From Cymbomonas tetramitiformis (Eukaryota > Chlorophyta > Pyramimonadophyceae > Pyramimonadales > Pyramimonadaceae): a stretch of 64,000 nt of DNA. Shown here one piece after another: positions 34,115 through 57,366 of this stretch. The notes under the pieces were generated by a model. The model saw only the letters and a program-made list of their open reading frames with translations. It was not told the origin of the DNA and did not search any database. Positions within the stretch are counted from its first letter, which is position 1. Each line of letters begins with the position of its first letter. The translations under genes were made by a program, and so were the position numbers. The DNA lies in the NCBI GenBank assembly GCA_001247695.2, contig LGRX02026028.1, forward strand, positions 1 through 64,000, given 5' to 3'.

Positions 34115-34120
34115 CACACT
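34115..34120. repeat. 6-bp target-site duplication CACACT (left)
   Basis: Identical to 57361-57366 on the other side of the provirus. Six bases is the known target duplication length for Polinton/Maverick integrases. Confidence 0.9.
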
Positions 34121-34387
34121 AGTAGTTAAGTACCGATTATAGCCCCCCCACCAAATAACTAAATAATAAATACAAGAAATAATTACGTAATAAATTGAGA
34201 ATAAATTACGTGATTAAATGTGTATACAATAAAAAATAAATAAAAAAATCTACAATAAAAATAATAATAATAAATGTAAAATAAAAACAAAATATAAAAG
34301 ATAAAGATAAAAAATTGTAAGTAAATGAAAAGTAAATTAATTAAGTTCTCAATATATATACATGTTAATTGTTCTTAAATCATTTAT
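34121..34387. repeat. left terminal inverted repeat
   Basis: About 267 bp, near-identical in reverse complement to 57095-57360, with a handful of substitutions and one indel. It begins with a C7 tract after AGTAGTTAAGTACCGATTATAG and ends inside the stop codon region of the SAP gene, so both outermost genes run up to the repeat. Confidence 0.95.
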
Positions 34388-34749
34388 GGAAGTTTAATAA
34401 GTCTTTGAATTAATTCTCGTTTTCTACCACTCACTTTTAATTTATTCTTCCTACATTCTTCTTTTAATTGTGAGAGTGTATATGTTTTAATGTTGACAAT
34501 ATAATTTCTTTCACGTATTGTATTTAAAAATCGTTTTTTATTCGATGAGTCATCTTGTATATTTTGCATTAATGAATGAATTATGTACAAATGTAAATTT
34601 TTACGACTCTTGAATTCTTTAAAAGGTAGCGGTCTTGATTTCCCCCACTCTTTCATTTCGTCTAATACATCTTTCATTTCAAGTTCATGTTTCATAAAGT
34701 AAATCTTTTCTTGAAGTTCAAGAGGAAGATGATTGAATGTAGTATTCAT
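34384..34749 (-). CDS. SAP-domain DNA-binding protein
   Basis: 121 residues from ATG at 34749. The C-terminal about 35 residues (TLSQLKEECRKNKLKVSGRKRELIQRLIKL) form a SAP motif, a helix-extended loop-helix that binds AT-rich DNA and is common in viral and nuclear proteins. The N-terminal part (LPLELQEKIYFMK) resembles an F-box-like start. It is the outermost left gene, its stop lies at the TIR edge, and its leader carries the shared promoter box. Role inferred: early DNA- or host-interaction factor. Confidence 0.7.
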   Translation of the reverse strand: MNTTFNHLPLELQEKIYFMKHELEMKDVLDEMKEWGKSRPLPFKEFKSRKNLHLYIIHSLMQNIQDDSSNKKRFLNTIRERNYIVNIKTYTLSQLKEECRKNKLKVSGRKRELIQRLIKLP

Positions 34750-34802
34750 GGTTGATTGTTTACACTACTGAGTTACACTCTTTAAGTGGATTTTATTTTT
34801 TT
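34750..34802 (-). promoter_or_regulatory. shared upstream box, copy 1 (SAP gene)
   Basis: Read toward the gene: AATAAAATCCACTTAAAG, then AGTGTAACTCAGTAGTGTAA, then the ATG. The same order and spacing occur before the RING gene (35560-35646) and the right-end gene (56626-56717). Confidence 0.7.
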
Positions 34803-34806
34803 GTTC

Positions 34807-35559
34807 TTAAAGCATTTGATATCTTATAATTGAATACCTACGTTCCATTAACTCTAAAATTTCTTTACAATATTCATTGTTCATTTCTTGACTAAACATT
34901 GTCATTTGAATATAATTATCTACATTACAAATTGTTATATTACCATCATCACATATTTTGACCGTTAAATAATTGTAACAATCTTCACCAATTCTATTTT
35001 TTCTTGCTATATTTAAAGCAGGAATATGAACACAATTTTCGTCCATATTTTCAAAAAATTCTTTTTGCATACATTTAATTCTATTTTTTAAGAGCTTTTC
35101 TTCTTTTATTTGTTTCAATTTTGTATCTTCAAATGACAACTTAATTTCTGAATAGAAAGAGTCATCAAAGTTTCTAAGTTCAATTACAAATTTGCATTCA
35201 TCTTTATAACTCCTTCTTATATCAACATGAATATGATTGTATTTTTCTTCACCATGATATGCTTTTCTCATAAAATTCAAAGCCGAGTTTCTCTCACATT
35301 CAGAACCACCATCCAAATTTACTTGGTCACACAAGTAAAACTCCATCACATCTGAGCTAAATTGAAATTTCCAATTTTCTGAACGACAAATTGGACATTC
35401 TACAACTCCACAACACGTCTCATTTTTCATTTCATTCGAACACTCATCACATATTGTACCTTCGTTGCAAACTTGACAAATAAAGTTGAATGTATCATAA
35501 GATTTGTGTTCAAAAGACTCAAGGCAAATACAACAATGTTTGTTATCATTAGTATTCAT
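34807..35559 (-). CDS. RING-finger protein, probable ubiquitin ligase
   Basis: 250 residues. The N-terminal 60 residues have a C3HC4-like RING array: CCICLESF, FICQVC, CDEC, CC and CPICRSENW. RING proteins recruit E2 ubiquitin-conjugating enzymes; in viruses they often target host factors. The rest (about 190 residues, many Glu/Asn/Lys) is unrecognised. It sits between two copies of the shared upstream box and its first residues (MNT) match those of the other two box-driven end genes. Confidence 0.75.
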   Translation of the reverse strand: MNTNDNKHCCICLESFEHKSYDTFNFICQVCNEGTICDECSNEMKNETCCGVVECPICRSENWKFQFSSDVMEFYLCDQVNLDGGSECERNSALNFMRKAYHGEEKYNHIHVDIRRSYKDECKFVIELRNFDDSFYSEIKLSFEDTKLKQIKEEKLLKNRIKCMQKEFFENMDENCVHIPALNIARKNRIGEDCYNYLTVKICDDGNITICNVDNYIQMTMFSQEMNNEYCKEILELMERRYSIIRYQML

Positions 35560-35646
35560 CTTGCTTTGTTTACACTACCGAGTTACACCCTTTAAGTGGA
35601 TTTTATTTTTTGAGGTTTTTTGTCCCCCTGAAAAACCGAAGAAATT
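35560..35646 (-). promoter_or_regulatory. shared upstream box, copy 2 (RING gene), part of a subterminal inverted repeat
   Basis: About 87 bases, matching 56626-56717 in reverse complement nearly throughout, including TTCTTCGGTTTTTCAGGGGG, AACCTC, AAAATCCACTTAAAG, GTGTAACT and GTGTAAACAAAGCAAG up to the ATG. Confidence 0.8.
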
Positions 35647-35864: not shown

Positions 35865-35892
35865 AAATGTGTATATATTAATATATATATTT

Positions 35893-36576: not shown

Positions 36577-36600
36577 ATATTTTATAATATTACATATATA

Positions 36601-36798: not shown

Positions 36799-36827
36799 AA
36801 CAATATATATAATACAATCGATAAAAA

Positions 36828-37977
36828 TCATCGTAAATCAATTTCCGTTTCATTATCTTTATTATTTTTATTTTGACTTCTTGTCCTTTTAGATATTTGA
36901 TTAGAAGATGAGACACCTTCTTTCCTAAGAGTTCTTTCTTTTTTATTTTGTTTAGAAACTAATTCAGAAACTGTGGGTTCGTCAGATTTTTTATTAGACG
37001 TGCTACCTTTAATTTCCAATAATTCGCGTGGTTTATATCGACGTGCCAAAGTTTCTTTACCGTCTTCGATGATATAACTCAATCCTTTCATAGATTTTAC
37101 TTTATATATTTTTGTCGACCATCGTTGAGATTCTTTATCAAACGTTTTAGTTTTAATTTTAATCCTAACTTTATCACCCGGTTTTATATCTATTTTTTCA
37201 AGAAGCTTAGTCAATTTATTCCTTTTCAATAAAATATTTCTGATGGTCTTTGTTAGGTTCATATTATCAGGAGTTGATTTATCAATATTTGCAGAATTTT
37301 GTGTACTATTATAATTTTTGACAACAGAATCCAAATAATCAATCCAGTTTACGGTGTCTTTACTTTCTTCTATCTTTTTGAATTTCAATTTTAATGTTCT
37401 ATTAAATCTTTCTACCATACCCATAGTAGTATGGTCTTCGGTTTCATTTAAATAATGCTCAATATTGTTGTCCTTTAATAATTTTTTTATAGATTTATTT
37501 GTAAATTCTACACCATTGTCCGTAGTCAATACATTCATTTTTGAATCTTTTATTAACTTTTTAAAAGCAGGAATTATTCCTTCAGCAGAATCAATGTTTT
37601 TGTTATTTTTATCTTTAACAGTTTTTGATTTTAATGGATATGCATAGGCCTTTCGTGTATTGATATTAATAGCCGTCAATATAACGGAGTAACCTCTATT
37701 TTGTTTTTTGAATTCAGGAATAAATGCTAAATCAGATTGAACATAATTCTTGTTAGGGTCTTTGCCGTAAATAGGAAATAACTCTTTTCTATTGATTTTC
37801 TTTTTTTGAGAAAAGGTTTGATTGACTTCAGTTTTTTCTATGGCTTCCTTGACTTGTTTTTGTGTGACTTTATAGCCAAGAGATTTTAATTTGGCCGTGA
37901 ATGGTGATACAGCACTTAATCCAAATTCGGGGTCTAAATAAAAGTCTTGTATTTTTTTCAGTGATTGACTTACTCAT
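36828..37977 (-). CDS. RVE-family DDE integrase, frameshifted near its start
   Basis: The frame is open from just after the T7 tract (37952-37958) to the TGA at 36828. The DDE triad is visible: first Asp in VQSDLAFIPEF, second in TTDNGVEF, Glu in MVERFNRTLK. A C-terminal small-barrel segment (GDKVRIKIKTKTFD...YKVKSMKGLSYIIEDG) ends in a basic tail. The only ATG in place (37977, 3 bases after the polymerase stop) is in a different frame. A run of seven A (gene strand) where six would keep the frame explains this. The copy is thus disrupted by one base, uses frameshifting, or contains a sequencing error. Known role: insertion of the viral genome with a 6-bp target duplication. Confidence 0.85.
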
Positions 37978-37979: not shown

Positions 37980-40900
37980 TTATAATGAAATATCTTTATG
38001 TCCCCAGGGTAGGATATTAAATGTTTCCCACTGAATATATCCTTTATCATAATTTAATGAAAATGATTTCGTTTCGCTTCTTGTTTCTATACCAAGAGCT
38101 GCATATTGTTTGTTAAATTGAGTTTTTTTCGGTTTTCTAAGAATATCGTATTTTAATTCTACAACTTTCTTTTGATTATTCAAAATTATTTCTTTGATTT
38201 CTTCATGATTGATACATTGAGAATTTTCATAATTTAATGGAAATCCTTTTACCTTAGTCATTGTTGTTCCATTATCGAATTTCAATGAATATGATTTAGG
38301 TGCTGTTGATACAAATTCAATGCATGTCTTATTTTCTAACTCGTCGGTCAGTTCTCCAAGATAATCACCAAGTTGTTCTTTGAAGATATAATTATTACTT
38401 GTATTTTCAATGTATACCACTGAGTCGGTATCGTGATATAGTACATTGTCAAATCCTACATCGTCCATTAAATTGTATAATTTCATTCTTGCATATGCCG
38501 TTGTAAACACTCCAATAACTTCGTTTACGGTGCAGTTTGTTTCAGAATATTCACTTAATAAATTAAAACCAACTTGGTATTTAACATCACCATTTTTGTT
38601 TTTTATTGGCTGAATTAGAACATTGTCATTTCTTGAATCTGATAAAATATCATATACTTCAGCACTATTCATGAATTTGTTTTGTCTTTTATTTGGTTTC
38701 AAACAATATCTACCCCACAAGTTGTTGAGAAATAATTTAGCAATAGTTCTCAATCCTTCATTTTTATATATTTTATCCTTTTCTAATAATATACCTTCCT
38801 TTTCAAAATATTTTTTAATATACAAATCTTTATCTTTTTCGCTTTGTACCCACTCAGGATATCCACTTGCTTCTTGTTTGATTTTTAAAAATGTATTAAT
38901 AAAGCTTTCAAAAATAGTATATGATGTATTTTCCCAGTGGACAACTTGATGAATTTTTTCTATGACATAACCTTTCTTTAAAGCTAATTTTACTTCTTCG
39001 GAGCACCAACATCCAGTCATTTTTGTCAAAGGAAATGTCAACTTCTCCATTTTAGAATGTCCCAAGTTCCTTAATGGTAAAACTGCCATTCCCAAATCAT
39101 TTGGTGGAATTATTGTGCATTTTATTACTCCAAAGAATTGTTCAATATCAGTAACTCCCTTTAATTCAATTTCTTGATAGATTTTTGTAGGATGTTTTGA
39201 AGGAAATTTACAATATTTTAAAACCCAAGGATACAAACTTGTAAAATCTACATATCGAATGGTTTCTCCTTTTTTGCATTTATAATACAATCTTTTAGGG
39301 TCTGTTCTTCCACCAAATAATGCATCTCTGAACACGATAGGTGTGTTATAACTATTTACGAAATCGATAACATTTTGGTCATTTTTTTGTAATTCCTTAA
39401 AATCACTTTCCCACATAATTTCTATGTTGTATCCAAGACTTCGAATTTTTTTCAATCTTTTTTTAGTCTCTTCATACAGTTGATAAAATGTTTTATTTGT
39501 GGCATAATTCTTTCTAAACATATTTTTACCATTTGTTTTTGGATTTCCATGCCAATAATCTCCAAGAAATTCATATATAGTATTTGTTGCAGGGTCAAAA
39601 CCATCTACATATTTATGTCTTTCATTGTTAACAAAATGGAAATGAGGAATTTTGTATTCTTTGATTAAATTATCAATTTTATTTGTATATTTTACATATT
39701 CCAACCAAATGTCTCCTATTGTTGATTGTTGTTTTCCTTTGATGACACTATTTAAAATAGCTATAGAATTTTCAGGCATATGCAAATACCTATGAATTGT
39801 TTGTGTTAAGGATGCAATAGTTAAATAGGAGGTTGGGTCAATTTCATTATTTGTTAAATCCAAAATTAATTCTCTATATTTCATCCATCCTAATCGTAAA
39901 ATTCTTACATCACTTTGACAATAATCTAATATTTCTTTTTCCATCACAAAATGATATTTATTGTTTTTCATTTGCGAATACCAATCCAAAAATTTCGCTC
40001 GTGCATCACCTTTCATTTGATTATATCCATAATACTTTTTGTCCGGTATTAAACCCTCATATCTTTTATTTTCAGGGGTATTAAACTTGTGTGGAAAAAA
40101 GCCTTTCTTTTCACCTTTTAAATCGAATATTTTTGAGAATTTACTCAATGGATTTGTTAAATGTAGGTAGCTGTCCATTAATGTCACGTTTTGATATTTT
40201 AGATACATTATTTTACCACCATTTTGTACCGTTTCAGGAATTTCATCCATTGTTGTCATTATGTATTCTATGATAAGTACATAATCATACTTACTACCAT
40301 TATGTGCTATAAAAGTAAACCCTTTATGTTTGTTTGAAAATAAAAATTTGCAAGCTTCTCCAATATTGTTGTGAATAAATTCCTCTCCATTAGAATATTG
40401 TGTCACACTCAGATTCACTTCGTGCTTTGTTTCATTGTATGCTTCGAAATCAAAAAATCCTATTTTACTTTCATCCACAACATCTTTTGGTTTCTTTGGT
40501 GTAATGTAACATTGATGCTCTCTCATGTCACAATATAGTTTACAATTTGGACAAAATTCATGTCCACAAATGTGTTCTTGTTCTTTTCTTATATCGTAAA
40601 CCTTTTTACACTCACCTTTGCACCTATGGAAATGTTGACAAGCTGTCCCTTTTTTGTGTAAATCATAACATTTCTGATTTGGAAATTTTATATTACAATC
40701 TTCACAATGTATGGCTTTCTTCCAATCAATAAATGGTTTTATTCCTTTTTTAGAAAAATCACACAATTTACTTTTACATTTAAAACATCTTGGCCGGTCA
40801 GCTATTCCATAAAAAGCTTCAATTTTCGTTATTGGTTCGTAGTGTCCAATACTTGAATTTAAATGATAATAAACAAAATTCCATTCCGGTCTGTCGGGCA

Positions 40901-41900
40901 AACCTTCTTTACTTGGCGGATACATTATTGTACAACCCAAATCAGTCATTCCATGAATTGTAATATTTTTGTTGAATTTTTCTTCAAAGACATGAATGTC
41001 ATCAAAACCTATACCGTCTTCAGCATTAAATTCTAATTCTTTCATTAAAATTATTGCTTCTCTTGTTAAACGATTTCTATGATTGTTGCAAATATGATTG
41101 TAAATTTTGTAAGTTATTTCTTCATTGTCTTTTTTATCTTTGTAATTCATAATAATGCAAGATTTTGCAAAACATTGTTCATCCTTAATTGTAATGCAAC
41201 TTTTCTTTTGCTTCAATTCTTCCACAGATTTTGGCACCGACAATGGTTGGCCTTTTCCATTAATTTTTTTGAAATTTAATAAAGAAATCGTAATAAAATT
41301 CACAGCCCCTCTATCATCTCCAGACTGAATCATTCCTTCTAATTTTTTATAAAATTCCATTTCGTTTTTTGCACTTAAAAATTCTGAAGAACCATCTTGG
41401 AAATTTACACCAAATTGAAAGTGTTTTACATCTTCCGAAGCTTGGTCTATTTTTTTATTAATTAAATTCATCCAATATTTCAAAGGTTTACTAATAAATC
41501 TATTAAATTTGATTTTCATGCTTACTCCGGAATTTCCACCTTTATCAACAAAATCTTTTGTAACATCTTTATCCGTAAATTGTTCTTCATATTCTTGTCG
41601 AGTAAACAAATCAAGGTCTTGTATTTTTTCATTTTTTGTTTCAAAATCTTTAATTTCAGATTGTATTTTTTGTGTTTTATTTTGTTTGGTAAATTCCTTA
41701 TTTACTTTTTTATTTTCAATTTGATTTAATTTAATCCATTGTTCCTTTGTCAATTGTCTTGAACTTGATGCCCCTAAAATTCCAACCCTATGGTTTTTAA
41801 CTTTTTTAAGATTGGTTCTCTTTGATTTAGTCAATGGAGCTTTGCCTTTATCATCTTTATCATTTTTACCATCTTTGTCATTTGACTTTTTAGGTGGCAT
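37980..41900 (-). CDS. polB: protein-primed family B DNA polymerase
   Basis: 1306 residues. Exonuclease motifs are FFDFEAY (about 482-488), FIAHNGSKYDY (about 530-540) and YCQSD (about 660-664). Polymerase motif A is DFTSLYP (885-891), motif B includes FLNNLWGR (1057-1064) and motif C is YHDTDS (1155-1160). A Cys/His cluster (about 372-464) suggests zinc binding ahead of the exonuclease. Between exonuclease and polymerase (about 755-835), YVDGFDPATNTIYEFLGDYW and GYNIEIMWESDF form a Vsr/PD-(D/E)XK-like nuclease signature seen in Maverick and PLV polymerases. The N-terminal about 120 residues are Lys-rich and may include the terminal-protein part. It replicates the linear genome from the TIRs. 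A degenerate shared promoter box lies upstream near 41940-41965. Confidence 0.93.
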   Translation of the reverse strand: MPPKKSNDKDGKNDKDDKGKAPLTKSKRTNLKKVKNHRVGILGASSSRQLTKEQWIKLNQIENKKVNKEFTKQNKTQKIQSEIKDFETKNEKIQDLDLFTRQEYEEQFTDKDVTKDFVDKGGNSGVSMKIKFNRFISKPLKYWMNLINKKIDQASEDVKHFQFGVNFQDGSSEFLSAKNEMEFYKKLEGMIQSGDDRGAVNFITISLLNFKKINGKGQPLSVPKSVEELKQKKSCITIKDEQCFAKSCIIMNYKDKKDNEEITYKIYNHICNNHRNRLTREAIILMKELEFNAEDGIGFDDIHVFEEKFNKNITIHGMTDLGCTIMYPPSKEGLPDRPEWNFVYYHLNSSIGHYEPITKIEAFYGIADRPRCFKCKSKLCDFSKKGIKPFIDWKKAIHCEDCNIKFPNQKCYDLHKKGTACQHFHRCKGECKKVYDIRKEQEHICGHEFCPNCKLYCDMREHQCYITPKKPKDVVDESKIGFFDFEAYNETKHEVNLSVTQYSNGEEFIHNNIGEACKFLFSNKHKGFTFIAHNGSKYDYVLIIEYIMTTMDEIPETVQNGGKIMYLKYQNVTLMDSYLHLTNPLSKFSKIFDLKGEKKGFFPHKFNTPENKRYEGLIPDKKYYGYNQMKGDARAKFLDWYSQMKNNKYHFVMEKEILDYCQSDVRILRLGWMKYRELILDLTNNEIDPTSYLTIASLTQTIHRYLHMPENSIAILNSVIKGKQQSTIGDIWLEYVKYTNKIDNLIKEYKIPHFHFVNNERHKYVDGFDPATNTIYEFLGDYWHGNPKTNGKNMFRKNYATNKTFYQLYEETKKRLKKIRSLGYNIEIMWESDFKELQKNDQNVIDFVNSYNTPIVFRDALFGGRTDPKRLYYKCKKGETIRYVDFTSLYPWVLKYCKFPSKHPTKIYQEIELKGVTDIEQFFGVIKCTIIPPNDLGMAVLPLRNLGHSKMEKLTFPLTKMTGCWCSEEVKLALKKGYVIEKIHQVVHWENTSYTIFESFINTFLKIKQEASGYPEWVQSEKDKDLYIKKYFEKEGILLEKDKIYKNEGLRTIAKLFLNNLWGRYCLKPNKRQNKFMNSAEVYDILSDSRNDNVLIQPIKNKNGDVKYQVGFNLLSEYSETNCTVNEVIGVFTTAYARMKLYNLMDDVGFDNVLYHDTDSVVYIENTSNNYIFKEQLGDYLGELTDELENKTCIEFVSTAPKSYSLKFDNGTTMTKVKGFPLNYENSQCINHEEIKEIILNNQKKVVELKYDILRKPKKTQFNKQYAALGIETRSETKSFSLNYDKGYIQWETFNILPWGHKDISL

Positions 41901-43080: not shown

Positions 43081-43554
43081 TCATTTATCTTTCCAATAGT
43101 CTTTCCCATAAGAAACAAATATCTCTTGATTCTTTTTTACATTTGATGTTAATCGAACATTTCCTACGGAATTTATTTTAGCATAATTTTTGCATTTGAT
43201 TCTTTTGGCACTTTGAGGGGTACAATCATTGAACTTACCGGCAACTGAATTTGTTTTCGATGCATCATAAAACAGATTATTATTCTTTTTCCAAATATGT
43301 GTTCTTCGATTCAATGGAGGTAATTCATTCATTGTCAATCGTTGCGTGCCGACGGTGTATCGACCAACTAACTTATCTTTTTTCAAGTCTTCTTTGGCAT
43401 ATACTCCAAGACCTGAATTTGGAATACTACTTTCCTTTATATCTACTACTCTATGAACATAACAATAAGGACTATATTTACAAGTCATGTTTCTACATTG
43501 ATTTCCACTACTTTTTGAAATAGCTATACACCGTTCACAAGATGTTTTCTTCAT
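43081..43554 (-). CDS. SET-domain protein (putative lysine methyltransferase)
   Basis: 157 residues. An N-terminal Cys cluster (CERC, CRNMTCKYSPYCYVH) is followed by a compact SET fold: SGLGVYAKEDLKKDKLVG, then VAGKFNDC in place of the usual RFINHSC, and EIFVSYGKDYW. Small viral SET proteins can methylate host histones. The altered Asn-His motif leaves activity uncertain. Its ATG overlaps the stop of the packaging ATPase (43551-43554). Confidence 0.75.
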   Translation of the reverse strand: MKKTSCERCIAISKSSGNQCRNMTCKYSPYCYVHRVVDIKESSIPNSGLGVYAKEDLKKDKLVGRYTVGTQRLTMNELPPLNRRTHIWKKNNNLFYDASKTNSVAGKFNDCTPQSAKRIKCKNYAKINSVGNVRLTSNVKKNQEIFVSYGKDYWKDK

Positions 43555-45140: not shown

Positions 45141-45184
45141 ATATGTTTATTTTAATCATTTTTTATTTTTTAGAAACTAATACT

Positions 45185-45907: not shown

Positions 45908-46411
45908 ATTCCTAAATTTGACTTCAGAATCGAATTCCTTGCGAAATTTTTGTTTATAGTATGTTTGCGAACATAAAAAGCTCATTTTTTCTAAGTGCGT
46001 TTTGAGTTACTTTTTCGCGCGAAATGTGTAACTCAAATTTTGGTAATTCTGTTTTGATTTTTACAAATCTGACTTCAGAAATGGATTCCTTGCGAAATTC
46101 TACGTATATAAAGTATTTTTTTGAATTTTATTTGATAAATTTCCTTTTAGTTTTCTAATATTCATTATTAATTCACATTTTTATTTATTGTTTTTTAATA
46201 CCATAATTACGTGCTGGCTACGTGCTGGCTACGTGCTGGAAACTGAGCCTGAAATTCTGGTTTGACTGTAAGATGTCTCAATTTAAATTTCCAGCACGTA
46301 GCCAGCACGTTTCTAGCACGTAAACACCTTGAAAACACGTCAAAGTCTTTCATCTCACCCGAAGCACCCACTGTTTGTATCTCGCTACTATCTTATTATT
46401 TTCAGGTAAAC
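45908..46411. repeat. spacer with direct and inverted repeats at the start of the cargo block
   Basis: GACTTCAGAAxxGxATTCCTTGCGAAATT occurs at about 45921 and 46071. Three tandem copies of ACGTGCTGGCT lie at 46209-46241 and their complement (TTTCCAGCACGTAGCCAGCA) at 46288-46321, giving a stem of over 20 bp. A TTATTTTCAG acceptor-like run precedes the ATG at 46412. No gene. Confidence 0.7.
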
Positions 46412-47542: not shown

Positions 47543-47587
47543 GTCCGATGCGGTGGTGTGGTGTGGTGTGGCAGTCATATTTGCAAA

Positions 47588-48226
47588 ATGGCTGACAACG
47601 TCCCCGCTGCTGCTGCACCTCCTCCCACTGAAGGTGATATTTTGCTTTCACCTCGGGGTACACCAATTACAAGAGACCCTTTTGGTAAACCCTTTGAACA
47701 AAGATATCTAAATAAGGTTACCGATGTGTGGGCCATGAGAGGGCTGTTTCGAGGAAAGCCTGTTTCAGGCGTTTATTTTTTGTATTCTATTGCAAGTTCG
47801 AAAGGTTTTATGAAAAAGCACCATTGGGGCAACGCACACAAGTATGGGGTTGGGGATTTTGAACTGGCTACAACGTTTGCTAACAGCAATGCCAACCCTG
47901 AATCGGACGCAGGGTGGTTGGCCCATTGGCTGCACACTCAGGGAATTTTCGCCAAGATATTTCTATTCGGAGTCTTTGCAATGATATATTTTGGAATAAT
48001 CATAACTCTCACTCAGCAGGCACACATATTCTTGCAATGCTCAAAGACCTTTAACTCGGTGAACCCGTTTTGTGTGGGAACCACCAAAGTGCTTTGGTTC
48101 GTAACCAACTATTCAGCCGAGCTTGTTGCAATTTTCTTCACGCAAGTCATTTTCGGCCTCACCTTGGCCTTTGTATTTTTTGCAAATATGCTCAACGGAC
48201 AAAATAGGTTCCAACGTAGGCCATAA
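47588..48226 (+). CDS. cargo protein 2: two-helix membrane protein, unknown
   Basis: 212 residues from ATG 47588. A Pro/Ala-rich start (MADNVPAAAAPPPTEGDILL) is followed by a soluble region. Two hydrophobic segments follow: IFAKIFLFGVFAMIYFGIII (about 124-143) and LVAIFFTQVIFGLTLAFVFF (about 179-198). It sits directly downstream of cargo protein 1 on the same strand. No family was recognised. Confidence 0.6.
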   Translation: MADNVPAAAAPPPTEGDILLSPRGTPITRDPFGKPFEQRYLNKVTDVWAMRGLFRGKPVSGVYFLYSIASSKGFMKKHHWGNAHKYGVGDFELATTFANSNANPESDAGWLAHWLHTQGIFAKIFLFGVFAMIYFGIIITLTQQAHIFLQCSKTFNSVNPFCVGTTKVLWFVTNYSAELVAIFFTQVIFGLTLAFVFFANMLNGQNRFQRRP

Positions 48227-48410
48227 CTTATTGACTGTTTTAGTTTTGAACTTACCAGCCTTGAAATAATTGGGCTGTGCAATATATAATAAGTGTTTTC
48301 TTATATTTGTATTCTATTGTGTGACTTGTTTTCTTGCAAATAATATTACAATATACTTAATAATGATTATTGTGTTTACAGGCTCACAAATAGCTATCGA
48401 CTTGAGGCAC

Positions 48411-48629
48411 ATGGAACCGACAGAACAGCAACCGGTTTGCACTAGGTGCATTGAGTGCGGCAGAATTTGTTGCATTAATTGTTTAGCCTTTGAAGAAGGG
48501 AGGCAAGCATTAACCCCTGAGTTTGTAAAGCATCAAAAGAACTTTCCTTTCACATGCATTAGTTGTAGAAAAGGAATTAATGACTTGTACACCACTCCTA
48601 CAAAAGTTGAAATAGAATTTGCCGACTAA
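48411..48629 (+). CDS. cargo protein 3: small zinc-binding-type protein, unknown
   Basis: 72 residues from the ATG at 48411; the frame is open to 48270. It contains CTRCIECGRICCINC and later CISC, a set of Cys pairs that could hold zinc. The sequence TGTGTTTACAG just upstream looks like a splice acceptor, so an upstream exon is possible. Start uncertain. Confidence 0.5.
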   Translation: MEPTEQQPVCTRCIECGRICCINCLAFEEGRQALTPEFVKHQKNFPFTCISCRKGINDLYTTPTKVEIEFAD

Positions 48630-48633
48630 AACT

Positions 48634-48924
48634 TTACCACAACAACTTATCAGCGAAATAACTATTTGTCCCTATCTTATTTCGGTATTTATTGTGTCTT
48701 AACTTAAATAATTTCCTCCTTTGGTTAGCATATTTAATACCTTTTAACTTAATATAAGATGGATAATCCATCATACCGCACGCACCGACAGTCGCTAATT
48801 TTCTATCAGTTTTCTTATCAAACACATCAATCTTCTTATCTTTATTTGTTGATATCTTGACATATACATTCAATTTGTTTGCTTTATCTTTAGTGTATTG
48901 AGATATTGAATACTTACAAGTCAT
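48634..48924 (-). CDS. DUF5754-like small viral protein
   Basis: 96 residues. KKIDVFDKKTDRKLATVGA, MMDYPSYIKLKG and RRKLFKLRHNKYR ... YFADKLLW match a short family I recall from giant viruses and PLVs (DUF5754). No function is known. It faces the cargo block tail to tail, with only 4 bases between stops. Confidence 0.65.
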   Translation of the reverse strand: MTCKYSISQYTKDKANKLNVYVKISTNKDKKIDVFDKKTDRKLATVGACGMMDYPSYIKLKGIKYANQRRKLFKLRHNKYRNKIGTNSYFADKLLW

Positions 48925-48951: not shown

Positions 48952-50268
48952 ATGCAAGGGTCTTTGTGCTCACCATTGAATAATTTTTGCAATAACAAAG
49001 TGCTGAATTCATCAAGTAAGATATTCAGTTTTCCTAATAACATGGATACTCCTAATTCAGTTTCAGATTTGAATAAAAGATATGAGTCAAATGAAAGTGA
49101 AAAGAAACGATATAGAGTTCAAATGAATAGCTTGTTCAAACAATTAGGTGACTTACAACCGTCACAAATTCAACAATCATTTTCAAATAGTCTTAGGGAA
49201 AAAGCATATCATGTCGGAATATCTTCTTATCTCGGTTCAAGAAATTATCAATCTGATTTGTTATTTCCGGGCGGTTATGAGCATAACACCTATGTAACCG
49301 CTCAAAGACAATTGAATAAAGATATTCTCAACAATCGATTCAATATCGACCCGGAGCTTTCAAATTATGACGCCGTAGTACTCAATAATGGAAATAATCA
49401 AATACATATTGCATATCACGGTGCGTCGTCAAATCCATCCTACCTAAATGAAGATAAAGCGGACATATTTTCGGTGATTAACGGTAAACATGAAACACGA
49501 GATTCATTTTTAAGAGCTGAAAAGGTATATTTAGACACATTGAAAAAGTATCCTAATCATGACATTGAATTGTTAGGGACATCTTTGGGCGGTGCGAAAT
49601 CCATTCATGTCGGTGAGAAATTCAATGTTAAATCGACGACGTTCAATCCATTTCTCTCACATGTATTCACCCCAAAGGTCAATGGTAATTCACCACAAAA
49701 TATTCATCGAGTTGTAACTGATTGGGCAACTGCGGGAGCTTTGAAAATACCATCAAATTCAAATAGAAAGTTGTTTCATTACTTCGAAAACAAGAACCCT
49801 TATGATTTATTCAAAGCACCGTATCAATATATCACTTCGCCGCATAATCTCAAACAATTCTTTCAAATGCCAAAGAATAGCAAAGTTAATAAGGTCAATT
49901 TATTGAAATCTACATTTAATACTATAGGGACCGGACTCGATGTGTTGATGTTCGGAAATGCTTTGAATGACGCAAGAAATCTTTCATCAAAAAATGTTGG
50001 AAGTGATGAATTTAACAATCGAATTTCAGAAGATTTGAATCCATTAGGACTTTTAGGAGTGAATTTCGATATCGACAAAAATTACTTGCATGATGACGCA
50101 CCCTTAGAAGCAAGATTATTGGCTGATTATATATCAAACAAAGGTCCTCAAAGAATGACATCATTTGATAGAAGTATAGATAAATCACAATCAAATAAGT
50201 ATACATCCATCAATGAAAATATGATTAAAGATGAAAATAATAATCTTTTGGTAAATTATGGAACGTGA
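48952..50268 (+). CDS. class-3-lipase-like alpha/beta hydrolase
   Basis: 438 residues. IHIAYHGASS (about 154-163) supplies the oxyanion His-Gly element; LLGTSLGGAKS (about 203-213) is the GxSxG nucleophile elbow. The long C-terminal half is unrecognised. Lipase-like proteins are carried by several PLVs, where they may help membrane exit or entry; that role is inference. The stop overlaps the next gene's ATG (50258-50268). Confidence 0.75.
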   Translation: MQGSLCSPLNNFCNNKVLNSSSKIFSFPNNMDTPNSVSDLNKRYESNESEKKRYRVQMNSLFKQLGDLQPSQIQQSFSNSLREKAYHVGISSYLGSRNYQSDLLFPGGYEHNTYVTAQRQLNKDILNNRFNIDPELSNYDAVVLNNGNNQIHIAYHGASSNPSYLNEDKADIFSVINGKHETRDSFLRAEKVYLDTLKKYPNHDIELLGTSLGGAKSIHVGEKFNVKSTTFNPFLSHVFTPKVNGNSPQNIHRVVTDWATAGALKIPSNSNRKLFHYFENKNPYDLFKAPYQYITSPHNLKQFFQMPKNSKVNKVNLLKSTFNTIGTGLDVLMFGNALNDARNLSSKNVGSDEFNNRISEDLNPLGLLGVNFDIDKNYLHDDAPLEARLLADYISNKGPQRMTSFDRSIDKSQSNKYTSINENMIKDENNNLLVNYGT

Positions 50269-50491
50269 ACACTTAATAAAAAATGCTCAGATTTTGTACC
50301 CTGATTTATCCACATTTCATATTGAATTGATTGTTGATGATTATATCAAAAGACCAAAACTATATGACGATATGTATAATGGAAACATTGAATTACCTTT
50401 ACCATTGAATAGAGATTCAAAGGAAGATATTGAAATGAATAAAAACTATATTGATATTATAAATAGAGATAGTCATGAGTGTAATATCTGA
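50258..50491 (+). CDS. small protein between lipase and penton genes, unknown
   Basis: 77 residues (MEREHLIKNAQILYPDLS). It overlaps the lipase gene at its start and the penton gene at its end, indicating a compact transcription unit. No domain was recognised. Confidence 0.6.
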   Translation: MEREHLIKNAQILYPDLSTFHIELIVDDYIKRPKLYDDMYNGNIELPLPLNRDSKEDIEMNKNYIDIINRDSHECNI

Positions 50492-51458
50492 ACGTACACT
50501 TTATTTATCAAGTGAAGACCTTTCATCGTTTGGTGATTCCAGAATTATCAATATCAATATACCAACACAATTAACAAACTATAAAAATACAAACAAATTG
50601 AAGATAATTGTAAACAGTTTTTCGGCTGCAAAGACTTGGTATACCATTAATGAATATAATGGAATTTTCTATATTGCTAAAATAAATTCTGATGATTTGT
50701 ATGAATGTAGAATACCTGATGGAAATTATACAGATTTAAATGATTTAAAATCGATTTTAGAAACAATTATCTTAGATGTCCTTGTCGCCAACTTTGGGTT
50801 TGCAAGGCCTGCTGATAGCGTTGATGTTACTTACAATGCAATTTCAGGACGTTTTACGATTACACTTAGCAAACCTGCTCCCGATATTAAATTTGTTGCA
50901 TTTTCAATAACCGGTGATTTTCAAGCAGTGCCAGGGAGTAATTTAGGTAATGCATTAAATAATATTTTTAATTCTCCCGGTAAATACAATGATGTAGACC
51001 AAGTCTTAGGCGGACAAACAAATAAATCAGTTGCCGGTTTAGCAGATTTTTCACAGATTAAAGATTTGTTTGACATCGAAACCGTAAATGAAGTATTTAT
51101 TTCCAAATTTCCCGGTAATTTGCAAACAAATGACGCTATTTATCTTAGAATTTCATCGTTGCCAACAAACAATTTAGAAAGCACTAACCTTTCCAATAAT
51201 TCAAAAGAAAATGTTATTATTTCCGGTGATATTTTAGGGAAAATTTTGCTACCTTCAGATTTAACTAAACAATTTATTACTTATTTAGATTACGATGAAA
51301 ACTTTGCAATAGACATTCAAGCATCACAATTTACATTTCTTCGTATCACACTTACGGACAAAAAAGCAAGATTACTTCCTACCGCCGTTTCCCAAAATGG
51401 AATTGAACAGTCCATAAATTATGCATTATCTTTGAAATTAAAAGAATATGTGAATTAA
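50475..51458 (+). CDS. minor capsid (penton) protein, single jelly roll
   Basis: 327 residues. It starts with SERTLYLSSEDLSSFGDSRIININIP, the N-terminal pattern of PLV penton proteins, and is rich in beta strands throughout. It sits directly before the major capsid gene, as in other PLVs. It is expected to form the fivefold vertices. Confidence 0.8.
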   Translation: MSVISERTLYLSSEDLSSFGDSRIININIPTQLTNYKNTNKLKIIVNSFSAAKTWYTINEYNGIFYIAKINSDDLYECRIPDGNYTDLNDLKSILETIILDVLVANFGFARPADSVDVTYNAISGRFTITLSKPAPDIKFVAFSITGDFQAVPGSNLGNALNNIFNSPGKYNDVDQVLGGQTNKSVAGLADFSQIKDLFDIETVNEVFISKFPGNLQTNDAIYLRISSLPTNNLESTNLSNNSKENVIISGDILGKILLPSDLTKQFITYLDYDENFAIDIQASQFTFLRITLTDKKARLLPTAVSQNGIEQSINYALSLKLKEYVN

Positions 51459-51485: not shown

Positions 51486-52832
51486 ATGTCTTTACCGTAT
51501 AGTCTTGCATTTGGACTTCAAAAACTAAGTGGATATAGTACTCAATATTTTCGTCTTGAAACGACAAACTTGACCGAAGTAAATCCTTACGGTGTTATAA
51601 CTTTGAATCTTCCAGTTAATGTTTTGTGTAATCTGAAAAGTTTAAGTATGCATTGTAAAGGTCGTGCTAACAATCCTGCCATAGCTTGTACGGACGCCGC
51701 AACCCAACCTGATTTAGTTATCACAACTTTGCCAAATGGAATCGAAAAATTGATTTCTCGTGTAGAAATTTACAGCGGTGGAATAGCTATTTCGAGTGGC
51801 ATGAGTCAATATTCAACGGTATCAGCGGTTTTGGACAATCTTAAAACAACGTTGAATAAAGAAGTATCTTATCAAAGAGTTTTGAAAAATCAAGAAATAA
51901 ATGTTAATACCGATAGTTATTATCAAGAAGAAAGACCATATATTTTGAATAATTTCCTACAATTTATAGGGGAATCTTCACCTGACTACCTAGATACTGC
52001 GTTACTACCAAGTATTCAAATTCGTTTTTTCATGCATGGACCGGAGGTGTTGGGTGCATATCAAAAATCATTAGGGGCCGGAAATGGATTTAATGGAACC
52101 GCGGCTGCCGAACTTGCTGCAAAAGCGACATGGAAATTGACTGATTTGCATTTTACAATTGAAACAATTACATTTTCAAATGGTGTTTACGATAGTGCTG
52201 TCGAAAGAAAACTAAAAGAAGATTCATATATTGAGATGCCTTTCACTAATTATTTTACCTTTCAAGATACTCAAACGGAAATGACTAAATCGAATCGATT
52301 CTCTTTGTCGGCACAATCTTTGGATATGTTATACGCTGTTCAAAGGCCTTCAAATTACAGTTCTGTTAATGAAGGGTTGCATAAAATTGATAACAAAATA
52401 GGTGCTACTTTCGTTCCAAGTTATTTTAGATTTTATTCCGGAGACATTCAATCTTGGCAATATAATGTCAACTCAATTTATTATCCAAATTATCGCGCCA
52501 CCGCTCTCGATGCTTTTAACTTGGTCACTATTGGTAAAGCTGATAATTATTCTGACGATTCAGGTTGTAAAGTTAATTCTTTAGAAAATTGGTACAATTC
52601 TTATTGGACTGCTATGCTTCGATTAAATATGCCTATGCCAGGTATGGGACCTCGTAATTGTAGTGGAATAGATACCCGGGGTTTGAATTCTTCATTCTTT
52701 CTTCAAACTCAAAAATCATCGACCGCAGACCCACTTCAAACACCTTTGACGAATAACGAAACATTTATTATTGCACAATGTACAAGTATCATTCGTATAG
52801 GTATGGGAAGAATGATTGAAGTGGTTGTATAA
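51486..52832 (+). CDS. major capsid protein, double jelly roll
   Basis: 448 residues. The recognisable PLV pattern includes NPYGVITLNLPVNVLCNLKS, LPNGIEKLISRVEIYSGG, then YIEMPFTNYFTFQDTQ, SSFFLQTQK and IRIGMGRMIEV at the C-terminus. Size and position (after the penton gene, before small structural genes) fit. It builds the icosahedral shell. Confidence 0.9.
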   Translation: MSLPYSLAFGLQKLSGYSTQYFRLETTNLTEVNPYGVITLNLPVNVLCNLKSLSMHCKGRANNPAIACTDAATQPDLVITTLPNGIEKLISRVEIYSGGIAISSGMSQYSTVSAVLDNLKTTLNKEVSYQRVLKNQEINVNTDSYYQEERPYILNNFLQFIGESSPDYLDTALLPSIQIRFFMHGPEVLGAYQKSLGAGNGFNGTAAAELAAKATWKLTDLHFTIETITFSNGVYDSAVERKLKEDSYIEMPFTNYFTFQDTQTEMTKSNRFSLSAQSLDMLYAVQRPSNYSSVNEGLHKIDNKIGATFVPSYFRFYSGDIQSWQYNVNSIYYPNYRATALDAFNLVTIGKADNYSDDSGCKVNSLENWYNSYWTAMLRLNMPMPGMGPRNCSGIDTRGLNSSFFLQTQKSSTADPLQTPLTNNETFIIAQCTSIIRIGMGRMIEVVV

Positions 52833-53577: not shown

Positions 53578-55412
53578 ATGTCTTCATTTGGAAATAATGT
53601 AGTTGCAAGTACATTTAATGGTAAACAAACTCCATCTACAAATGTTCCTGACCCTTTAACAATTAATCAAATAAATGTAAATCAAATAGGTGATAATTCA
53701 AACCCTTGTCAAACAATTCATATGGCTTCAGATTTTTTATATCAAAATGATATTGATTTTATTGATAATTCTGATGTAAATAATCAAAGAGAATTCATGA
53801 AATTACAAACTGATGGTGATTTAAATTTGGTTAATAATATCAATTTTTATGATTTCATTTTAAACAATCCTGCAAGTAAATCAAAATTCTCTATAGGTTT
53901 GGATGAACTTGATAGTTCTTTTGAAATTAAATCTTTAGACCCTGTTCCTCAAACAAGATTGAAAATAGGAGACAACGGTATCAATGAATGGTCCTTTATG
54001 CAAACCACATTGAATGTAGAACCACTTGGAGCAGGTGTACTTTTAAATGATGGACCTCTAATTTTAAACACCGGTGATATTACTTTGAATTCTGGAAAAT
54101 TTATTGGTGACGGTTCTTTGCTTCAAAACTTGCCTTCCGGGGCTAACCAAAATTTACAATCTGTTACCGACCAAGAAGTACAACTACAACGAATGATATT
54201 TCTTTTACCGGAACTGGAAAATTTACGATAAATCAAGATGAAATTGATGGTGCTTTAATTAGGATTAGAGGCGGTACTCAAGATGCTAAAATTCGTATTG
54301 GTGAAACAACAAGTGATGACGGATATATAAATGCACAACGTGCAATATTAATAGGCAGAAATGCTGGTTCATTCGGTTGTGGAATTGATGTTTTGGCTTT
54401 AGGTTCAGGTAGTGGATATGACCAAGCTGGGAATTATTCGGTAAATTTAGGAGATGATTCCGGACAAAGTAACGCCGGTGTGGAATCTGTTTCTGTAGGA
54501 AGATTTGCAGGCGAAGTTTTTAGTGGTCTAAATTCAGTGTCATTAGGTTCATATGCTAATAAGAATACCGGAGGAACTTCGTCTGTCAACAATACTATTT
54601 GTATAAATGCAACCGGTGTTGAATTAAATTCTGTAAATCCAAGTTCATTTACGGTAAAACCTATAAGACCAAGTCCTGATGTGACATTAGAAAATTTACA
54701 ATTGTATTATGATTCAGTTTCCGGTGAAATAAAATCTGGTGCAATAAATTCTGGAAGTATTGGTTCATTAAGTCAAGTTTTGGCTGTCGGTAATTCTGGA
54801 AATAACATTAATTTAACCGGTGATTTGGATTGTAGTGCTATACGACTTGTAAGTAGCATAGACTGGGCATATACAACGCCAACATCATCATTGACGACCG
54901 TAGGAATTCCTTTGACAGGTTTGACAAATGCATATACGGCAACATTACCCACAAGTCCGGTTCCTCATACAGGTGATGTATTTACTTTTAAAAATAATAC
55001 CGGAGCTACAATAAATGCTGGAGATATTGTTCAATTTTCTGATGATTTTTCAGATGTAAATGGTATAAAAATATATGCAGCTTCGGCAAGTCAATCTAAT
55101 CAAAATTGTATGCCTATTGGAGTTTGTGTTCAAAATGCAACAACCGGAAATTCTTGTTTCGTTTGTACAAAAGGTTTCACAACTTGCAAAGCTATTGATG
55201 GAAGTTATGTTAAAGGTCAAATGTTAGGTTGTGCTCCGGGAGGTTCAGTTAATGCTTCACAAATTACTACAAATAATGTTGGAATTATCGGTGTGTGTAT
55301 GGAAAGTAAAGTTATAACAACTCGGGTTCAGGATTATTGGTTTGGATTAAACCTGATTTTAAATTGTGATTTAATATATATATATATATCAGATGTCTTC
55401 TTTTGGAAATGA
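53578..55412 (+). CDS. fibre-like protein with YadA-type repeats, frameshifted
   Basis: The first frame (53578-54231) starts MSSFGNNVV and ends early. The reading continues without break in another frame from about 54180 to 55412 with TTNDISFTGTGKFTIN. The change lies at about 54172-54185 and is repaired by adding one base. The downstream part has LALGSGSGYDQAGNYSVNLG and VSVGRFAG...SVSLGSYAN, repeats like YadA heads of trimeric adhesins. NTICINATGVELNS...FTVKPIR and LYYDSVSGEI follow, a block common in fibres of marine viruses. Expected role: host recognition. The break could be a real mutation, phase-variable control, or an assembly error. Confidence 0.7.
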
Positions 55413-56622
55413 TATTGTTTGTAAAAATATACAATGTAATACGGTAAATGGAAATGCTCCTACTGGGGGGTCTACTAAGTGGCAAAACCTACCCGGTGGT
55501 AATGATATAGAAAGGACCGTTGGTGACGTATACGTAAACAATTTATACGGCAGAGACGTTTTGAATACTTCAATTATAAATTTTCGATATTTGAAAAATA
55601 TTTTAAATAATGGAAAGGCACAAATTGAATTGAAGGATGGAACTGATAATAGTGTTATAATCGTTACAGGCAGTGAACTGCAAGTAAATACAACTTTCGG
55701 TTTGATAGTAAACGGTGATGCAAAAATCAATGGAAAAACAGAACTGGTCGCACCAGATAATACCACAAATCTTGATTTATTTGGAAATAAAACATCAGGT
55801 AATAGTTTCATAAGTTTAAATACCTCAGGTGTAGATTTATCGAGTGTTTCAACGATATATTTTATAAATTTTCAAACGAAACCTGATTCAGCTGTACCTA
55901 AATTTTTTAGTATCAATATGAAAGGTGATATAATAGGATGTAGTGATATAGAATGCAATAACATTATAATTAATGCACAATTAGGTTCCAAGACAAATTT
56001 AGAATTACAAGGGCCAAAATCTGCTAATTCAACATTTATAGATTTGAATACATCACTGGTTGATGAAGCAGCAGTTGATTCAGTGTATGCTTTGCAGTTT
56101 CGAAAACGACCTGATATACCATCAAATGAATTTTTCAGAATTAATATGTTAGGTGATATCCGAGGTGCTAATTTAATAAAAGCTGATATTGTTCAAACTC
56201 CTTTCGCGGATATAAATATTTTGAAAGTAAATAAAGAATTGAATTATGAAGAAATTTCAAGAGTAACTACGCTTTCAGCACCCGGAAATGAAAATATACG
56301 AACCATTCAATTTCCTGATGATAGTTTCATTATTTACTTGGATTTTGCTACTATAGCTACTGATGGTACAGACGATATCAAGTTCAAGATAACACACGCC
56401 GATACTTCAATTCAACCAAAGATTGGTACGGAATATCTTTTGAGATGTTCAACGATAACGGTCAATACCACAAAAGCAAAAAGATTTACATTAAATTCAA
56501 GTGTAAATTATATTGAAGCTGATGACGAAGTTGAGTTAAGAATAACGGACATTTCCGGTGAACAATTTGCAAATAACACTTTACGTTTTGTATTGGAATT
56601 GATACGTATACCGTATATTTAG
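55393..56622 (+). CDS. fibre-like protein with internal repeats
   Basis: 409 residues, starting MSSFGNDIVCKNIQ. Two copies of a roughly 60-residue unit occur at about 117-178 and 198-258: TNLDLFGNKTSGNSFISLNT...FFSINMKGDI and TNLELQGPKSANSTFIDLNT...FFRINMLGDI. The C-terminus (FIIYLDFATI...LRFVLELIRIPYI) is beta-rich and could be the receptor-binding tip. Its start overlaps the end of the preceding gene. Confidence 0.65.
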   Translation: MSSFGNDIVCKNIQCNTVNGNAPTGGSTKWQNLPGGNDIERTVGDVYVNNLYGRDVLNTSIINFRYLKNILNNGKAQIELKDGTDNSVIIVTGSELQVNTTFGLIVNGDAKINGKTELVAPDNTTNLDLFGNKTSGNSFISLNTSGVDLSSVSTIYFINFQTKPDSAVPKFFSINMKGDIIGCSDIECNNIIINAQLGSKTNLELQGPKSANSTFIDLNTSLVDEAAVDSVYALQFRKRPDIPSNEFFRINMLGDIRGANLIKADIVQTPFADINILKVNKELNYEEISRVTTLSAPGNENIRTIQFPDDSFIIYLDFATIATDGTDDIKFKITHADTSIQPKIGTEYLLRCSTITVNTTKAKRFTLNSSVNYIEADDEVELRITDISGEQFANNTLRFVLELIRIPYI

Positions 56623-56625
56623 TAA

Positions 56626-56717
56626 TAAATTTCTTCGGTTTTTTTCAGGGGGACAAAAAACCTCAAAAAAATAAAATCCACTTAAAGAGTGTAACTCAAT
56701 AGTGTAAACAAAGCAAG
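56626..56717 (+). promoter_or_regulatory. shared upstream box, copy 3 (right-end gene)
   Basis: Reads TTCTTCGG, T-rich, CAGGGGGACAAAAAACCTC, AAAATCCACTTAAAG, GTGTAACT, GTGTAAACAAAGCAAG, then the ATG. Near-exact reverse complement of 35560-35646. Confidence 0.8.
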
Positions 56718-57098
56718 ATGAATACATTAGACTTACATTGTTGGATTGAACGTAAGGATGGTTCTATTTATGACCCAACTCCGATAATGAATGAAGATTT
56801 TATTTTCATGTTTCGTAATATAAGTGACAAAACAAGATATTATGAAAAATATGAAGGTGATGAATTAAAAGATGCTTGCATCAATGTTTTTGATGTTATC
56901 AAAAAATTTGAAAAAGATAATGAAAAAAATGGAATTAGTACAAGAACTCAAGTAAAAAAGAACAAATATTCTTTACCAAGCTTATGTTTCTTGAATGCTT
57001 ATTATTGGGTACAAGACCATAAAGGTAAAGGTAAAATGAAAATAGGAAAAATGGGTTGGAAAACAAATAAAGGAAACATATGGTGGGAATTTGGATAA
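56718..57098 (+). CDS. right-end protein, unknown; conserved viral C-terminus
   Basis: 126 residues. CFLNAYYWVQDHKGKGKMKIGKMGW and the ending NIWWEFG recall a short family in algal large DNA viruses. Its leader and first residues (MNT) resemble those of the SAP and RING genes at the other end, and its stop lies at the TIR edge. Likely expressed with them. Confidence 0.6.
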   Translation: MNTLDLHCWIERKDGSIYDPTPIMNEDFIFMFRNISDKTRYYEKYEGDELKDACINVFDVIKKFEKDNEKNGISTRTQVKKNKYSLPSLCFLNAYYWVQDHKGKGKMKIGKMGWKTNKGNIWWEFG

Positions 57099-57360
57099 AT
57101 GATTTAAGAACAATTAACATGTATATATATTGAGAACTTAATTAATTTACTTTTCATTTACTTACAATTTTTTATCTTTATCTTTTATATTTTGTTTTTA
57201 TTTTACATTTATTTTTATCATTTTTATTGTAGATTATTTATTTATTTTTTATTGTATACACATTTAATCACGTAATTTATTCTCAATTTATTACGTAATT
57301 ATTTCTTGTATTTATTATTTAGTTATTTGGTGGGGGGGCTATAATCGGTACTTAACTACT
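57095..57360. repeat. right terminal inverted repeat
   Basis: About 266 bp, the reverse complement of 34121-34387. Contains the G7 tract near 57331 and ends CTTAACTACT. Confidence 0.95.
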
Positions 57361-57366
57361 CACACT
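57361..57366. repeat. 6-bp target-site duplication CACACT (right)
   Basis: Identical to 34115-34120. Confidence 0.9.

What the first reader, a model, noticed from the sequence alone, without database searches (positions are those of the whole stretch)
34115..57366. Complete Polinton-like provirus with AG...CT termini, about 266-bp TIRs and perfect 6-bp target duplication
Both ends can be placed to the base and flank a full set of replication, packaging and capsid genes. The TIRs, duplication and capsid gene order are visible directly. The combination of RVE integrase, protein-primed PolB and PLV-type capsid without a protease or SF3 helicase makes it a useful member for placing PLVs relative to Mavericks.
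Basis: partly seen in the sequence, partly recalled or inferred. Interest (0 to 1): 0.9.

Follow-up and report, generated by a model that had tools for sequence, protein, structure and literature searches.

The report
Algal provirus with a swappable slot
This is a small DNA virus integrated in a green alga's genome, one of a large family already reported there, and otherwise near-identical sister copies carry quite different genes at one fixed internal spot, as if they trade recognition genes.

Summary
A 23,240-bp element (34121-57360) has AGTAGTTAAG ends, ~267-bp TIRs (outer 124 bp identical), a CACACT duplication and a PLV gene set; its capsid protein is predicted to fold as a double jelly roll. 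It is not rare. What I did not find described lies inside it. Backbones are alike (median 95-100% in five copies), yet a GC-rich slot (45911-48635) has no DNA match in 4 of 5 comparable copies; the fifth, with neighbours at 98-100%, carries a 44% identical version of one slot gene. Genome-wide, in 40 of 40 gene pairs this Cys-rich/coiled-coil gene lies upstream of a two-TM gene, and in 37 of 40 it is the less conserved; 10 of 11 with a partner at >=93% are only 35-61% identical (three exceptions). A fibre tip is swapped too. I read the slot as an exchangeable recognition or exclusion module; the exchange is shown, the function inferred.

The parts
34115..34120 (.). target site duplication CACACT, left
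34121..34387 (+). left TIR (~267 bp)
34384..34749 (-). SAP-domain protein, 121 aa; this end region is poorly matched in other copies
   Evidence: PF02037 5e-10
36828..37973 (-). rve/DDE integrase (open stretch; no ATG in frame before the catalytic part)
   Evidence: PF00665 4e-8, above cutoff, on 36831-37955
37980..41900 (-). protein-primed-type family B DNA polymerase, 1306 aa, with exonuclease and palm motifs
   Evidence: PF03175 5e-42; motifs; quick tree
43081..43554 (-). SET-domain protein, 157 aa
   Evidence: PF00856 2.5e-6
43551..44471 (-). P-loop ATPase, probable packaging ATPase
   Evidence: AAA_7 2.7e-6; phrog_2666 7e-5
44514..45140 (-). C5 cytosine methylase-like protein
   Evidence: PF00145 7e-7
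45092..45907 (+). N6/N4 DNA methylase; left border of the slot
   Evidence: PF01555 1.7e-25
45911..48635 (.). exchangeable GC-rich slot, 41% GC, different content in other copies
46412..47542 (+). hypervariable slot protein, 376 aa, Cys-rich N-terminal part and coiled coil
47588..48226 (+). conserved slot partner, 212 aa, two hydrophobic (TM) stretches
48363..48629 (+). 88-aa slot protein with CxxC pairs
   Evidence: sequence; 98% in C23647
48634..48924 (-). 96-aa protein at the right border of the slot; resembles Tlr6F/DUF5754 by recall only, no Pfam hit
48952..50268 (+). lipase-like protein (GTSLGG motif, by eye)
   Evidence: UPF0227 0.0024, below cutoff
50475..51458 (+). putative penton/minor capsid protein (by position)
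   Evidence: no informative profile hit
51486..52832 (+). major capsid protein, 448 aa, double jelly roll
53578..55412 (+). long fibre/cement-like gene in two frames (53578-54231 and 54201-55412)
   Evidence: PF09956 Phage_cement_2 3e-4, just below cutoff, in 54201-55409
55393..56622 (+). 409-aa fibre-like protein; its C-terminal part (about 55.9-56.6 kb) is exchanged between copies
57094..57360 (-). right TIR
57361..57366 (.). target site duplication CACACT, right

Best explanation
The element is an integrated Polinton-like virus, most likely of the PLVB clade, of the green alga Cymbomonas tetramitiformis. Inferred from its families: it replicates by protein priming from its ends (pPolB), is packaged by its ATPase into a double-jelly-roll capsid, and was inserted by its rve/DDE integrase; the 6-bp duplication left by the last step is shown. 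Inside it two places are exchanged as units between copies while the rest stays alike: a GC-rich gene slot between the N6-methylase gene and a 96-aa gene, and the tip of a fibre. Shown: fixed slot borders, replaced slot content in near-identical backbones, mostly open frames, and a fixed pairing of a hypervariable Cys-rich/coiled-coil protein with a better conserved two-TM protein. Inferred: recombination between co-infecting or co-resident copies makes the exchange; the variable protein is the specificity part and the two-TM protein the common anchor or effector of a module by which a resident PLV excludes, or tells apart, competing PLVs or giant viruses, with rare versions favoured. The confidence given is for the PLV identity plus the exchange; the exclusion/recognition function alone I put at about 0.3.
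For: Identity; host: two named proteins and genome size; PLVB: contig C1 is 418,321 bp, as the published 418-kb giant-virus scaffold with a 23-kb PLVB insert, and its copy matches the window at 97.5% over 2.9 kb (of the loci list: L035), plus PF09956, recalled as the former DUF2190, which PMC10675990 calls characteristic of PLVA/PLVB. Exchange: five copies cover both slot borders; 4 of 5 have no DNA match in the slot, 1 of 5 has one gene replaced. C23647: SET, ATPase, N6-methylase and the part of the C5-methylase that matched 100%, slot gene 44%, TM gene 99%; C17637: MCP 100%, lipase-like and putative penton 99%, window slot proteins absent. Backbone medians 95-100% in the five copies. Pairs: 40 of 40 in the same order, 37 of 40 with the upstream gene less conserved; with the TM partner at >=93%, 10 of 11 at 35-61%. 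Frames: 44 of 51 matches of the 376-aa protein have no stop.
Against: The window-type and the other slot proteins were not shown to be one family (hhalign probability 3.9%), so 'one module type' is unproven. Three of 40 pairs go the other way (C12262 68% against 42%; C11304 and C21908 on short matches). C711 has the same slot genes as the window (98 and 100%). The backbone is not uniform: 32 of 224 matched 250-bp bins are below 90%, the lowest 65%, the N6-methylase is 76-93% in four of five copies, and the left end 34.4-35.3 kb is poorly matched. Copies were picked through TIR matches. No expression, localisation or function data.
Confidence: 0.75

Rival explanations
1. Ordinary PLV mosaicism: the slot is a tolerant place where non-essential genes come and go, with no common function.
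For: Non-homologous gene replacement is described for endogenous virophages (PMC8547959, passages only); PMC10675990 notes diverse gene content; different slots hold different proteins.
Against: Mostly open frames (44 of 51), fixed gene pairing (40 of 40) and similar block length (2.7-3.1 kb) suggest kept function.
Confidence: 0.35
2. The slot genes are captured host genes that ride as cargo and are expressed from the host side (lysogenic-conversion-like), unrelated to virus competition.
For: GC and GC3 are shifted towards the host; PMC10675990 reports a few transcribed loci in PLV regions, some with introns, read there as host genes or domesticated viral genes.
Against: All 40 pairs found have the same two-gene arrangement; I did not find a single-copy host source, but did not search for one with introns.
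Confidence: 0.2
3. The 376-aa gene simply mutates very fast, without exchange.
For: It is the less conserved member in 37 of 40 pairs.
Against: 44% protein identity beside genes at 98-100%, with sharp borders at 46142 and 47584 and an unrelated upstream region; whole-slot replacement in four copies.
Confidence: 0.07
4. Assembly artefact: the hybrid assembler joined different proviruses at the slot.
For: Many near-identical copies, hybrid assembly (PMC10675990).
Against: The same gene order recurs on dozens of contigs; slot proteins with named NCBI Cymbomonas entries exist; C1 and C17637 agree over 5.9 kb including the slot.
Confidence: 0.07
5. The GC-rich block is a nested transposon.
For: GC-rich nested retroelements in PLVs are reported (PMC12220804); the C3220 copy has a 2.76-kb insert with inverted repeats in its methylase gene.
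Against: No Pfam reverse transcriptase or transposase hit in the three slot ORFs; different content between the same borders.
Confidence: 0.03

Closest known systems
PLVB (and PLVA) endogenous Gezel-like PLVs of Cymbomonas tetramitiformis (PMC10675990)
   Same: Same host, size range, GC drop, pPolB plus DDE-type integrase, TIRs, a long ORF with PF09956 (recalled as the former DUF2190)
   Different: The parts of the paper that I read do not describe a fixed exchangeable slot or fibre-tip swaps; supplements and parts 4-5 were not read
Cryptophyte PLVs with rve integrase (PMC12220804, clusters C2-C4)
   Same: rve integrase, 6-bp duplications, pPolB in some, no protease in most, methylases, phage-like fibres
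   Different: Other hosts; their membrane proteins are SLATT proteins, while no SLATT profile hit the 212-aa protein here
Animal Mavericks/Polintons
   Same: pPolB of the full exonuclease type, rve integrase, AG...CT ends, 6-bp duplication
   Different: No protease found; PolB falls outside the named animal rows in a quick tree
Virophage EMALEs of Cafeteria (PMC8547959, passages)
   Same: Integrated in a protist, gene-block replacement between copies
   Different: Virophage-type capsid and protease genes there; replacement of larger modules
Immunity/exclusion modules and tail-fibre tips of temperate phages (recalled)
   Same: Specificity genes exchanged in near-identical backbones
   Different: No sequence relation shown; exclusion untested here

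Membership tests
Polinton-like virus (PLV) | Double-jelly-roll major capsid protein | tested here: met
   Model pLDDT 72; PBCV-1 and iridovirus capsids at about 1e-13
Polinton-like virus (PLV) | Packaging ATPase | tested here: met
   AAA_7 2.7e-6, phrog_2666 7e-5; no A32-specific profile was available
Polinton-like virus (PLV) | Minor capsid/penton protein | tested here: inconclusive
   50475-51458 by position; best profile hit E 0.044, unknown function
Polinton-like virus (PLV) | TIRs and integration with target duplication | tested here: met
PLVB clade of Cymbomonas | MCP in the PLVB clade | not tested
   Published MCPs not at hand; inferred from 97.5% DNA identity over 2.9 kb to the copy in the 418-kb contig C1
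PLVB clade of Cymbomonas | Long ORF with DUF2190 affinity | tested here: met
   PF09956 3.2e-4, 21.5 bits against a cutoff of 24, so weak; that PF09956 is the former DUF2190 is recalled
PLVB clade of Cymbomonas | pgvv05 gene | not tested
   No reference sequence at hand
Animal Maverick/Polinton | Adenain-type protease | tested here: not met
   No hit in 26 ORFs and two open stretches
Animal Maverick/Polinton | Maverick-type capsid | tested here: inconclusive
   12 MCP relatives, none with an organism name
PLVs with pPolB-S1H fusion (Tlr1-like) | Palm fused to SF1 helicase, exonuclease lost | tested here: not met
   Exonuclease motifs present and no helicase hit in PolB
Exclusion/recognition module | Version-specific effect on a second virus | not testable with these tools
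   Needs experiments

The most novel reading that the evidence does not exclude
Eukaryotic PLV proviruses carry a phage-like specificity slot: a module in which a hypervariable Cys-rich/coiled-coil recognition protein is exchanged by recombination next to a conserved two-TM membrane effector, giving each provirus a version-specific exclusion or antiviral trait. Frequency-dependent selection on it would help explain how more than a thousand related proviruses coexist in one alga and in the genome of an integrated giant virus.
Probability: 0.25. Interest if true: 0.82.

Novelty: new variant of a known kind. Interest (0 to 1): 0.52.

Why it matters
As a provirus it is a further copy of a published family. 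The slot gives a natural experiment: proviruses in one genome with core proteins at 98-100% that differ in one gene, and a close relative inside a probable giant-virus contig. It makes testable what PLVs compete over, and whether the anti-giant-virus effect reported for a PLV (PMC12945077, abstract) depends on exchangeable modules.

Tried and rejected
IMG/VR scans with the MCP, the ATPase and the MCP alignment found no relative. PDB sequence searches with the MCP, PolB and the MCP profile found nothing. The nested-transposon reading of the GC-rich block was dropped. That all slot proteins are one family was not upheld. A first pair count (35 of 35) left out rows; the recount with them gives 37 of 40, with three exceptions, and replaces it. 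Literature searches for a PLV cargo or hypervariable slot listed nothing that describes one; they cover only the held open library, and I judged from listings. The genome-wide controls with the lipase-like and N6-methylase proteins, the MCP count and the empty-site search did not complete. One structure job and one fold search were left unused.
Full report
What is there. The element runs from 34121 to 57360 (23,240 bp). Its ends are AGTAGTTAAG...CTTAACTACT, its TIRs are about 267 bp, the outer 124 bp pair exactly, and CACACT is repeated on both sides. The arms differ by three substitutions and one 1-base gap. GC is 30% in the element outside the slot and 50% in the window's flanks. The genome holding the window has 851.7 Mb in 25,745 contigs; the TIR has 40 scored matches there, of 819 candidates, at 93-100% identity, the window's own two included. 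At seven other insertion ends the flanks differ, four with the terminus AGTAGTTAAGTACC exactly and three with changes, so these are separate insertions.

Genes. Mostly minus strand on the left: SAP-domain protein, integrase, PolB, SET protein, ATPase, C5-methylase. Mostly plus strand on the right: N6-methylase, slot genes, lipase-like protein, putative penton, MCP, and three proteins beginning MSSFGN, the last a 409-aa fibre-like one. PolB (1306 aa) shows a candidate vOTU Cys and His, three exonuclease motifs and palm motifs A-C (motif names recalled), which fits the TP-vOTU-EXO-PALM layout that PMC11071308 (section 5 part 1 and section 11 read) describes for polintons. In a quick FastTree tree of the window with its 120 listed homologs (rows with more than 400 filled columns kept; 513 passed the E-value), it falls in a group of six (support 1.0) with P0013 and P0015-P0018, none named; the named animal rows lie outside. 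The MCP model (mean pLDDT 72, 13 sequences) matches PBCV-1 and iridovirus capsids at E about 1e-13; its best BFVD match has E 4e-34, 21% identity and no name. No protease or SF3 helicase hit was found. Two genes have frame breaks in this assembly.

Host and family. A search with an alignment of slot proteins returned three proteins of 7,251 candidates; two are named Cymbomonas tetramitiformis and align to the window protein. The published assembly (PMC10675990, parts 1-3 of 5 read) is nanopore/Illumina, 914.3 Mb in 35,945 scaffolds, 51.4% GC; the held one is smaller, so it is another or filtered version. [quoted passage not shown] Contig C1 here is 418,321 bp, has a TIR match at 337359-337618 and a copy matching the window at 97.5% over 2.9 kb. 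So the window element is very probably PLVB; that C1 is the giant-virus scaffold is inferred from its length and its PLV, and I had no published MCPs for a tree.

The slot. Between 45911 and 48635 GC rises to 41% and GC3 of the genes to 0.39-0.45, against 0.14-0.32 in the other element ORFs measured. I profiled ten copies. Five cover both borders. In C17637, C3220, C717 and C1 DNA identity stops at 45910 and returns at 48626-48636, with a different GC-rich block of 2.9-3.1 kb between. In C23647 the flanks are 99% identical but the first slot gene with its upstream region, 46142-47584, is replaced by a diverged homolog. Protein identities to the window: C23647, SET, ATPase, N6-methylase and the matched part of the C5-methylase 100%, slot gene 44%, TM gene 99%, 88-aa gene 98%, 96-aa gene 99%; C17637, MCP 100%, putative penton and lipase-like 99%, N6-methylase 90%, the three window slot proteins absent. 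Outside slot and fibre tip the five copies have medians of 95-100%, and 192 of 224 matched 250-bp bins are at 90% or more; the lowest is 65%, in C3220. Dips include the N6-methylase (76-93% in four of five copies) and the left end. The other five profiled copies (C20112, C4873, C18216, C12746, C24567) do not cover the slot, except that C24567 matches the last 391 bp of the window's slot at 93%. Of the further stretches fetched, L029, L031, L033, L034 and L036 are mostly more diverged PLV fragments and others missed the slot; L034 has a GC-rich Cys-rich/coiled-coil gene near a methylase.

Alternative slots are mosaics. C17637 and C3220 share 896 bp at 92%, 455 bp at 99%, 263 bp at 88% and 180 bp at 69%, around unmatched stretches. 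C1 and C17637 are 99.6% identical over 5.9 kb, slot included. The proteins of these slots could not be tied to the window's by profile comparison (E 0.011, probability 3.9%).

Genome-wide. The 376-aa protein has 51 matches on 45 contigs, 30-100% identity, 44 of 51 without a stop. The 212-aa protein has 151 matches, with 150 of 268 candidates scored and the list cut. My first count of neighbours used too few rows; the recount pairs matches on one contig and strand within 3 kb, window left out. Of 40 pairs, 40 have the 376-aa homolog upstream and 37 have it less conserved (medians 45% against 82.5%). The three exceptions are C12262 (68% against 42%), C11304 plus strand (63% against 57%, short) and C21908 (66% on 81 residues against 45%). 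Some pairs are near-identical duplicates: 27 of 30 distinct identity pairs go the same way. With the TM protein at 93% or more there are 11 pairs; ten have the variable protein at 35-61%, one (C711) at 98%. Five contig strands with a 376-aa match have no listed partner. A fast clock alone hardly gives 44% identity beside genes at 98-100%; replacement is the simpler reading.

Fibre tip. Six profiled copies cover 55.9-56.6 kb: two match the window at 98-100% (C717, C18216), four do not (C17637, C3220, C12746, C24567). In C3220 the tip is 34% identical where the MCP is 96%; in C717 the tip is 99% while the N-terminal part is 61%.

Mechanism. Shown: insertion with a 6-bp duplication, exchange at two places, mostly kept frames, fixed gene pairing. 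Inferred: exchange during co-infection or between resident copies; attachment specificity for the fibre tip, by analogy with fibres in PMC12220804; recognition or exclusion for the slot. A two-TM partner recalls the SLATT proteins discussed for cryptophyte PLVs, but no SLATT profile hit. Inhibition of a giant virus by a PLV is reported for CpV-PLV Moe (PMC12945077, abstract only), so an antiviral role is plausible but untested here.

Limits. Copies were chosen through TIR matches; the genome tool answered three times; the per-gene control across all copies, the MCP count and the empty site remain undone. My statement that the slot is undescribed rests on the sections named above, on Results parts 1-2 of 3 of PMC10120064, on passages of PMC8547959 and on the searches; supplements were not available. 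Of PMC12721341 I saw the abstract only.

Noticed in passing
L035 (G000:C1:322618-329118) and L022 (G000:C17637:46500-52500): The copy in the 418-kb contig, probably the giant-virus scaffold, and the copy in C17637 are 99.6% identical over 5.9 kb including the slot, which suggests recent movement between giant-virus and host DNA.
   Followed up: partly
L009 1-681 (G000:C17637:38000-38680); L016, L017: PLVs nested in PLVs: the C17637 copy begins inside another copy's PolB sequence, and C18216 holds several interleaved PLV pieces and TIRs.
   Followed up: partly
L023 2626-5381 (G000:C3220): A 2.76-kb, 49% GC insert with long inverted repeats interrupts the N6-methylase gene of that copy.
   Followed up: no
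window 46207-46323: Inverted repeat with several GCACGTA units just upstream of the 376-aa slot gene, a possible regulatory region; it lies in the part that is replaced in C23647.
   Followed up: no
window 34742-34803, 35552-35635, 56642-56725: A 62-84-bp sequence ending at gene starts recurs three times near the two ends, in facing orientation, perhaps a shared promoter.
   Followed up: no
window 61391-62851: Ty3/gypsy-type integrase with zinc-binding and chromo domains in the host flank, in two frames.
   Followed up: no
window 1139-2542: 467-codon open stretch in the host flank with no Pfam hit.
   Followed up: no
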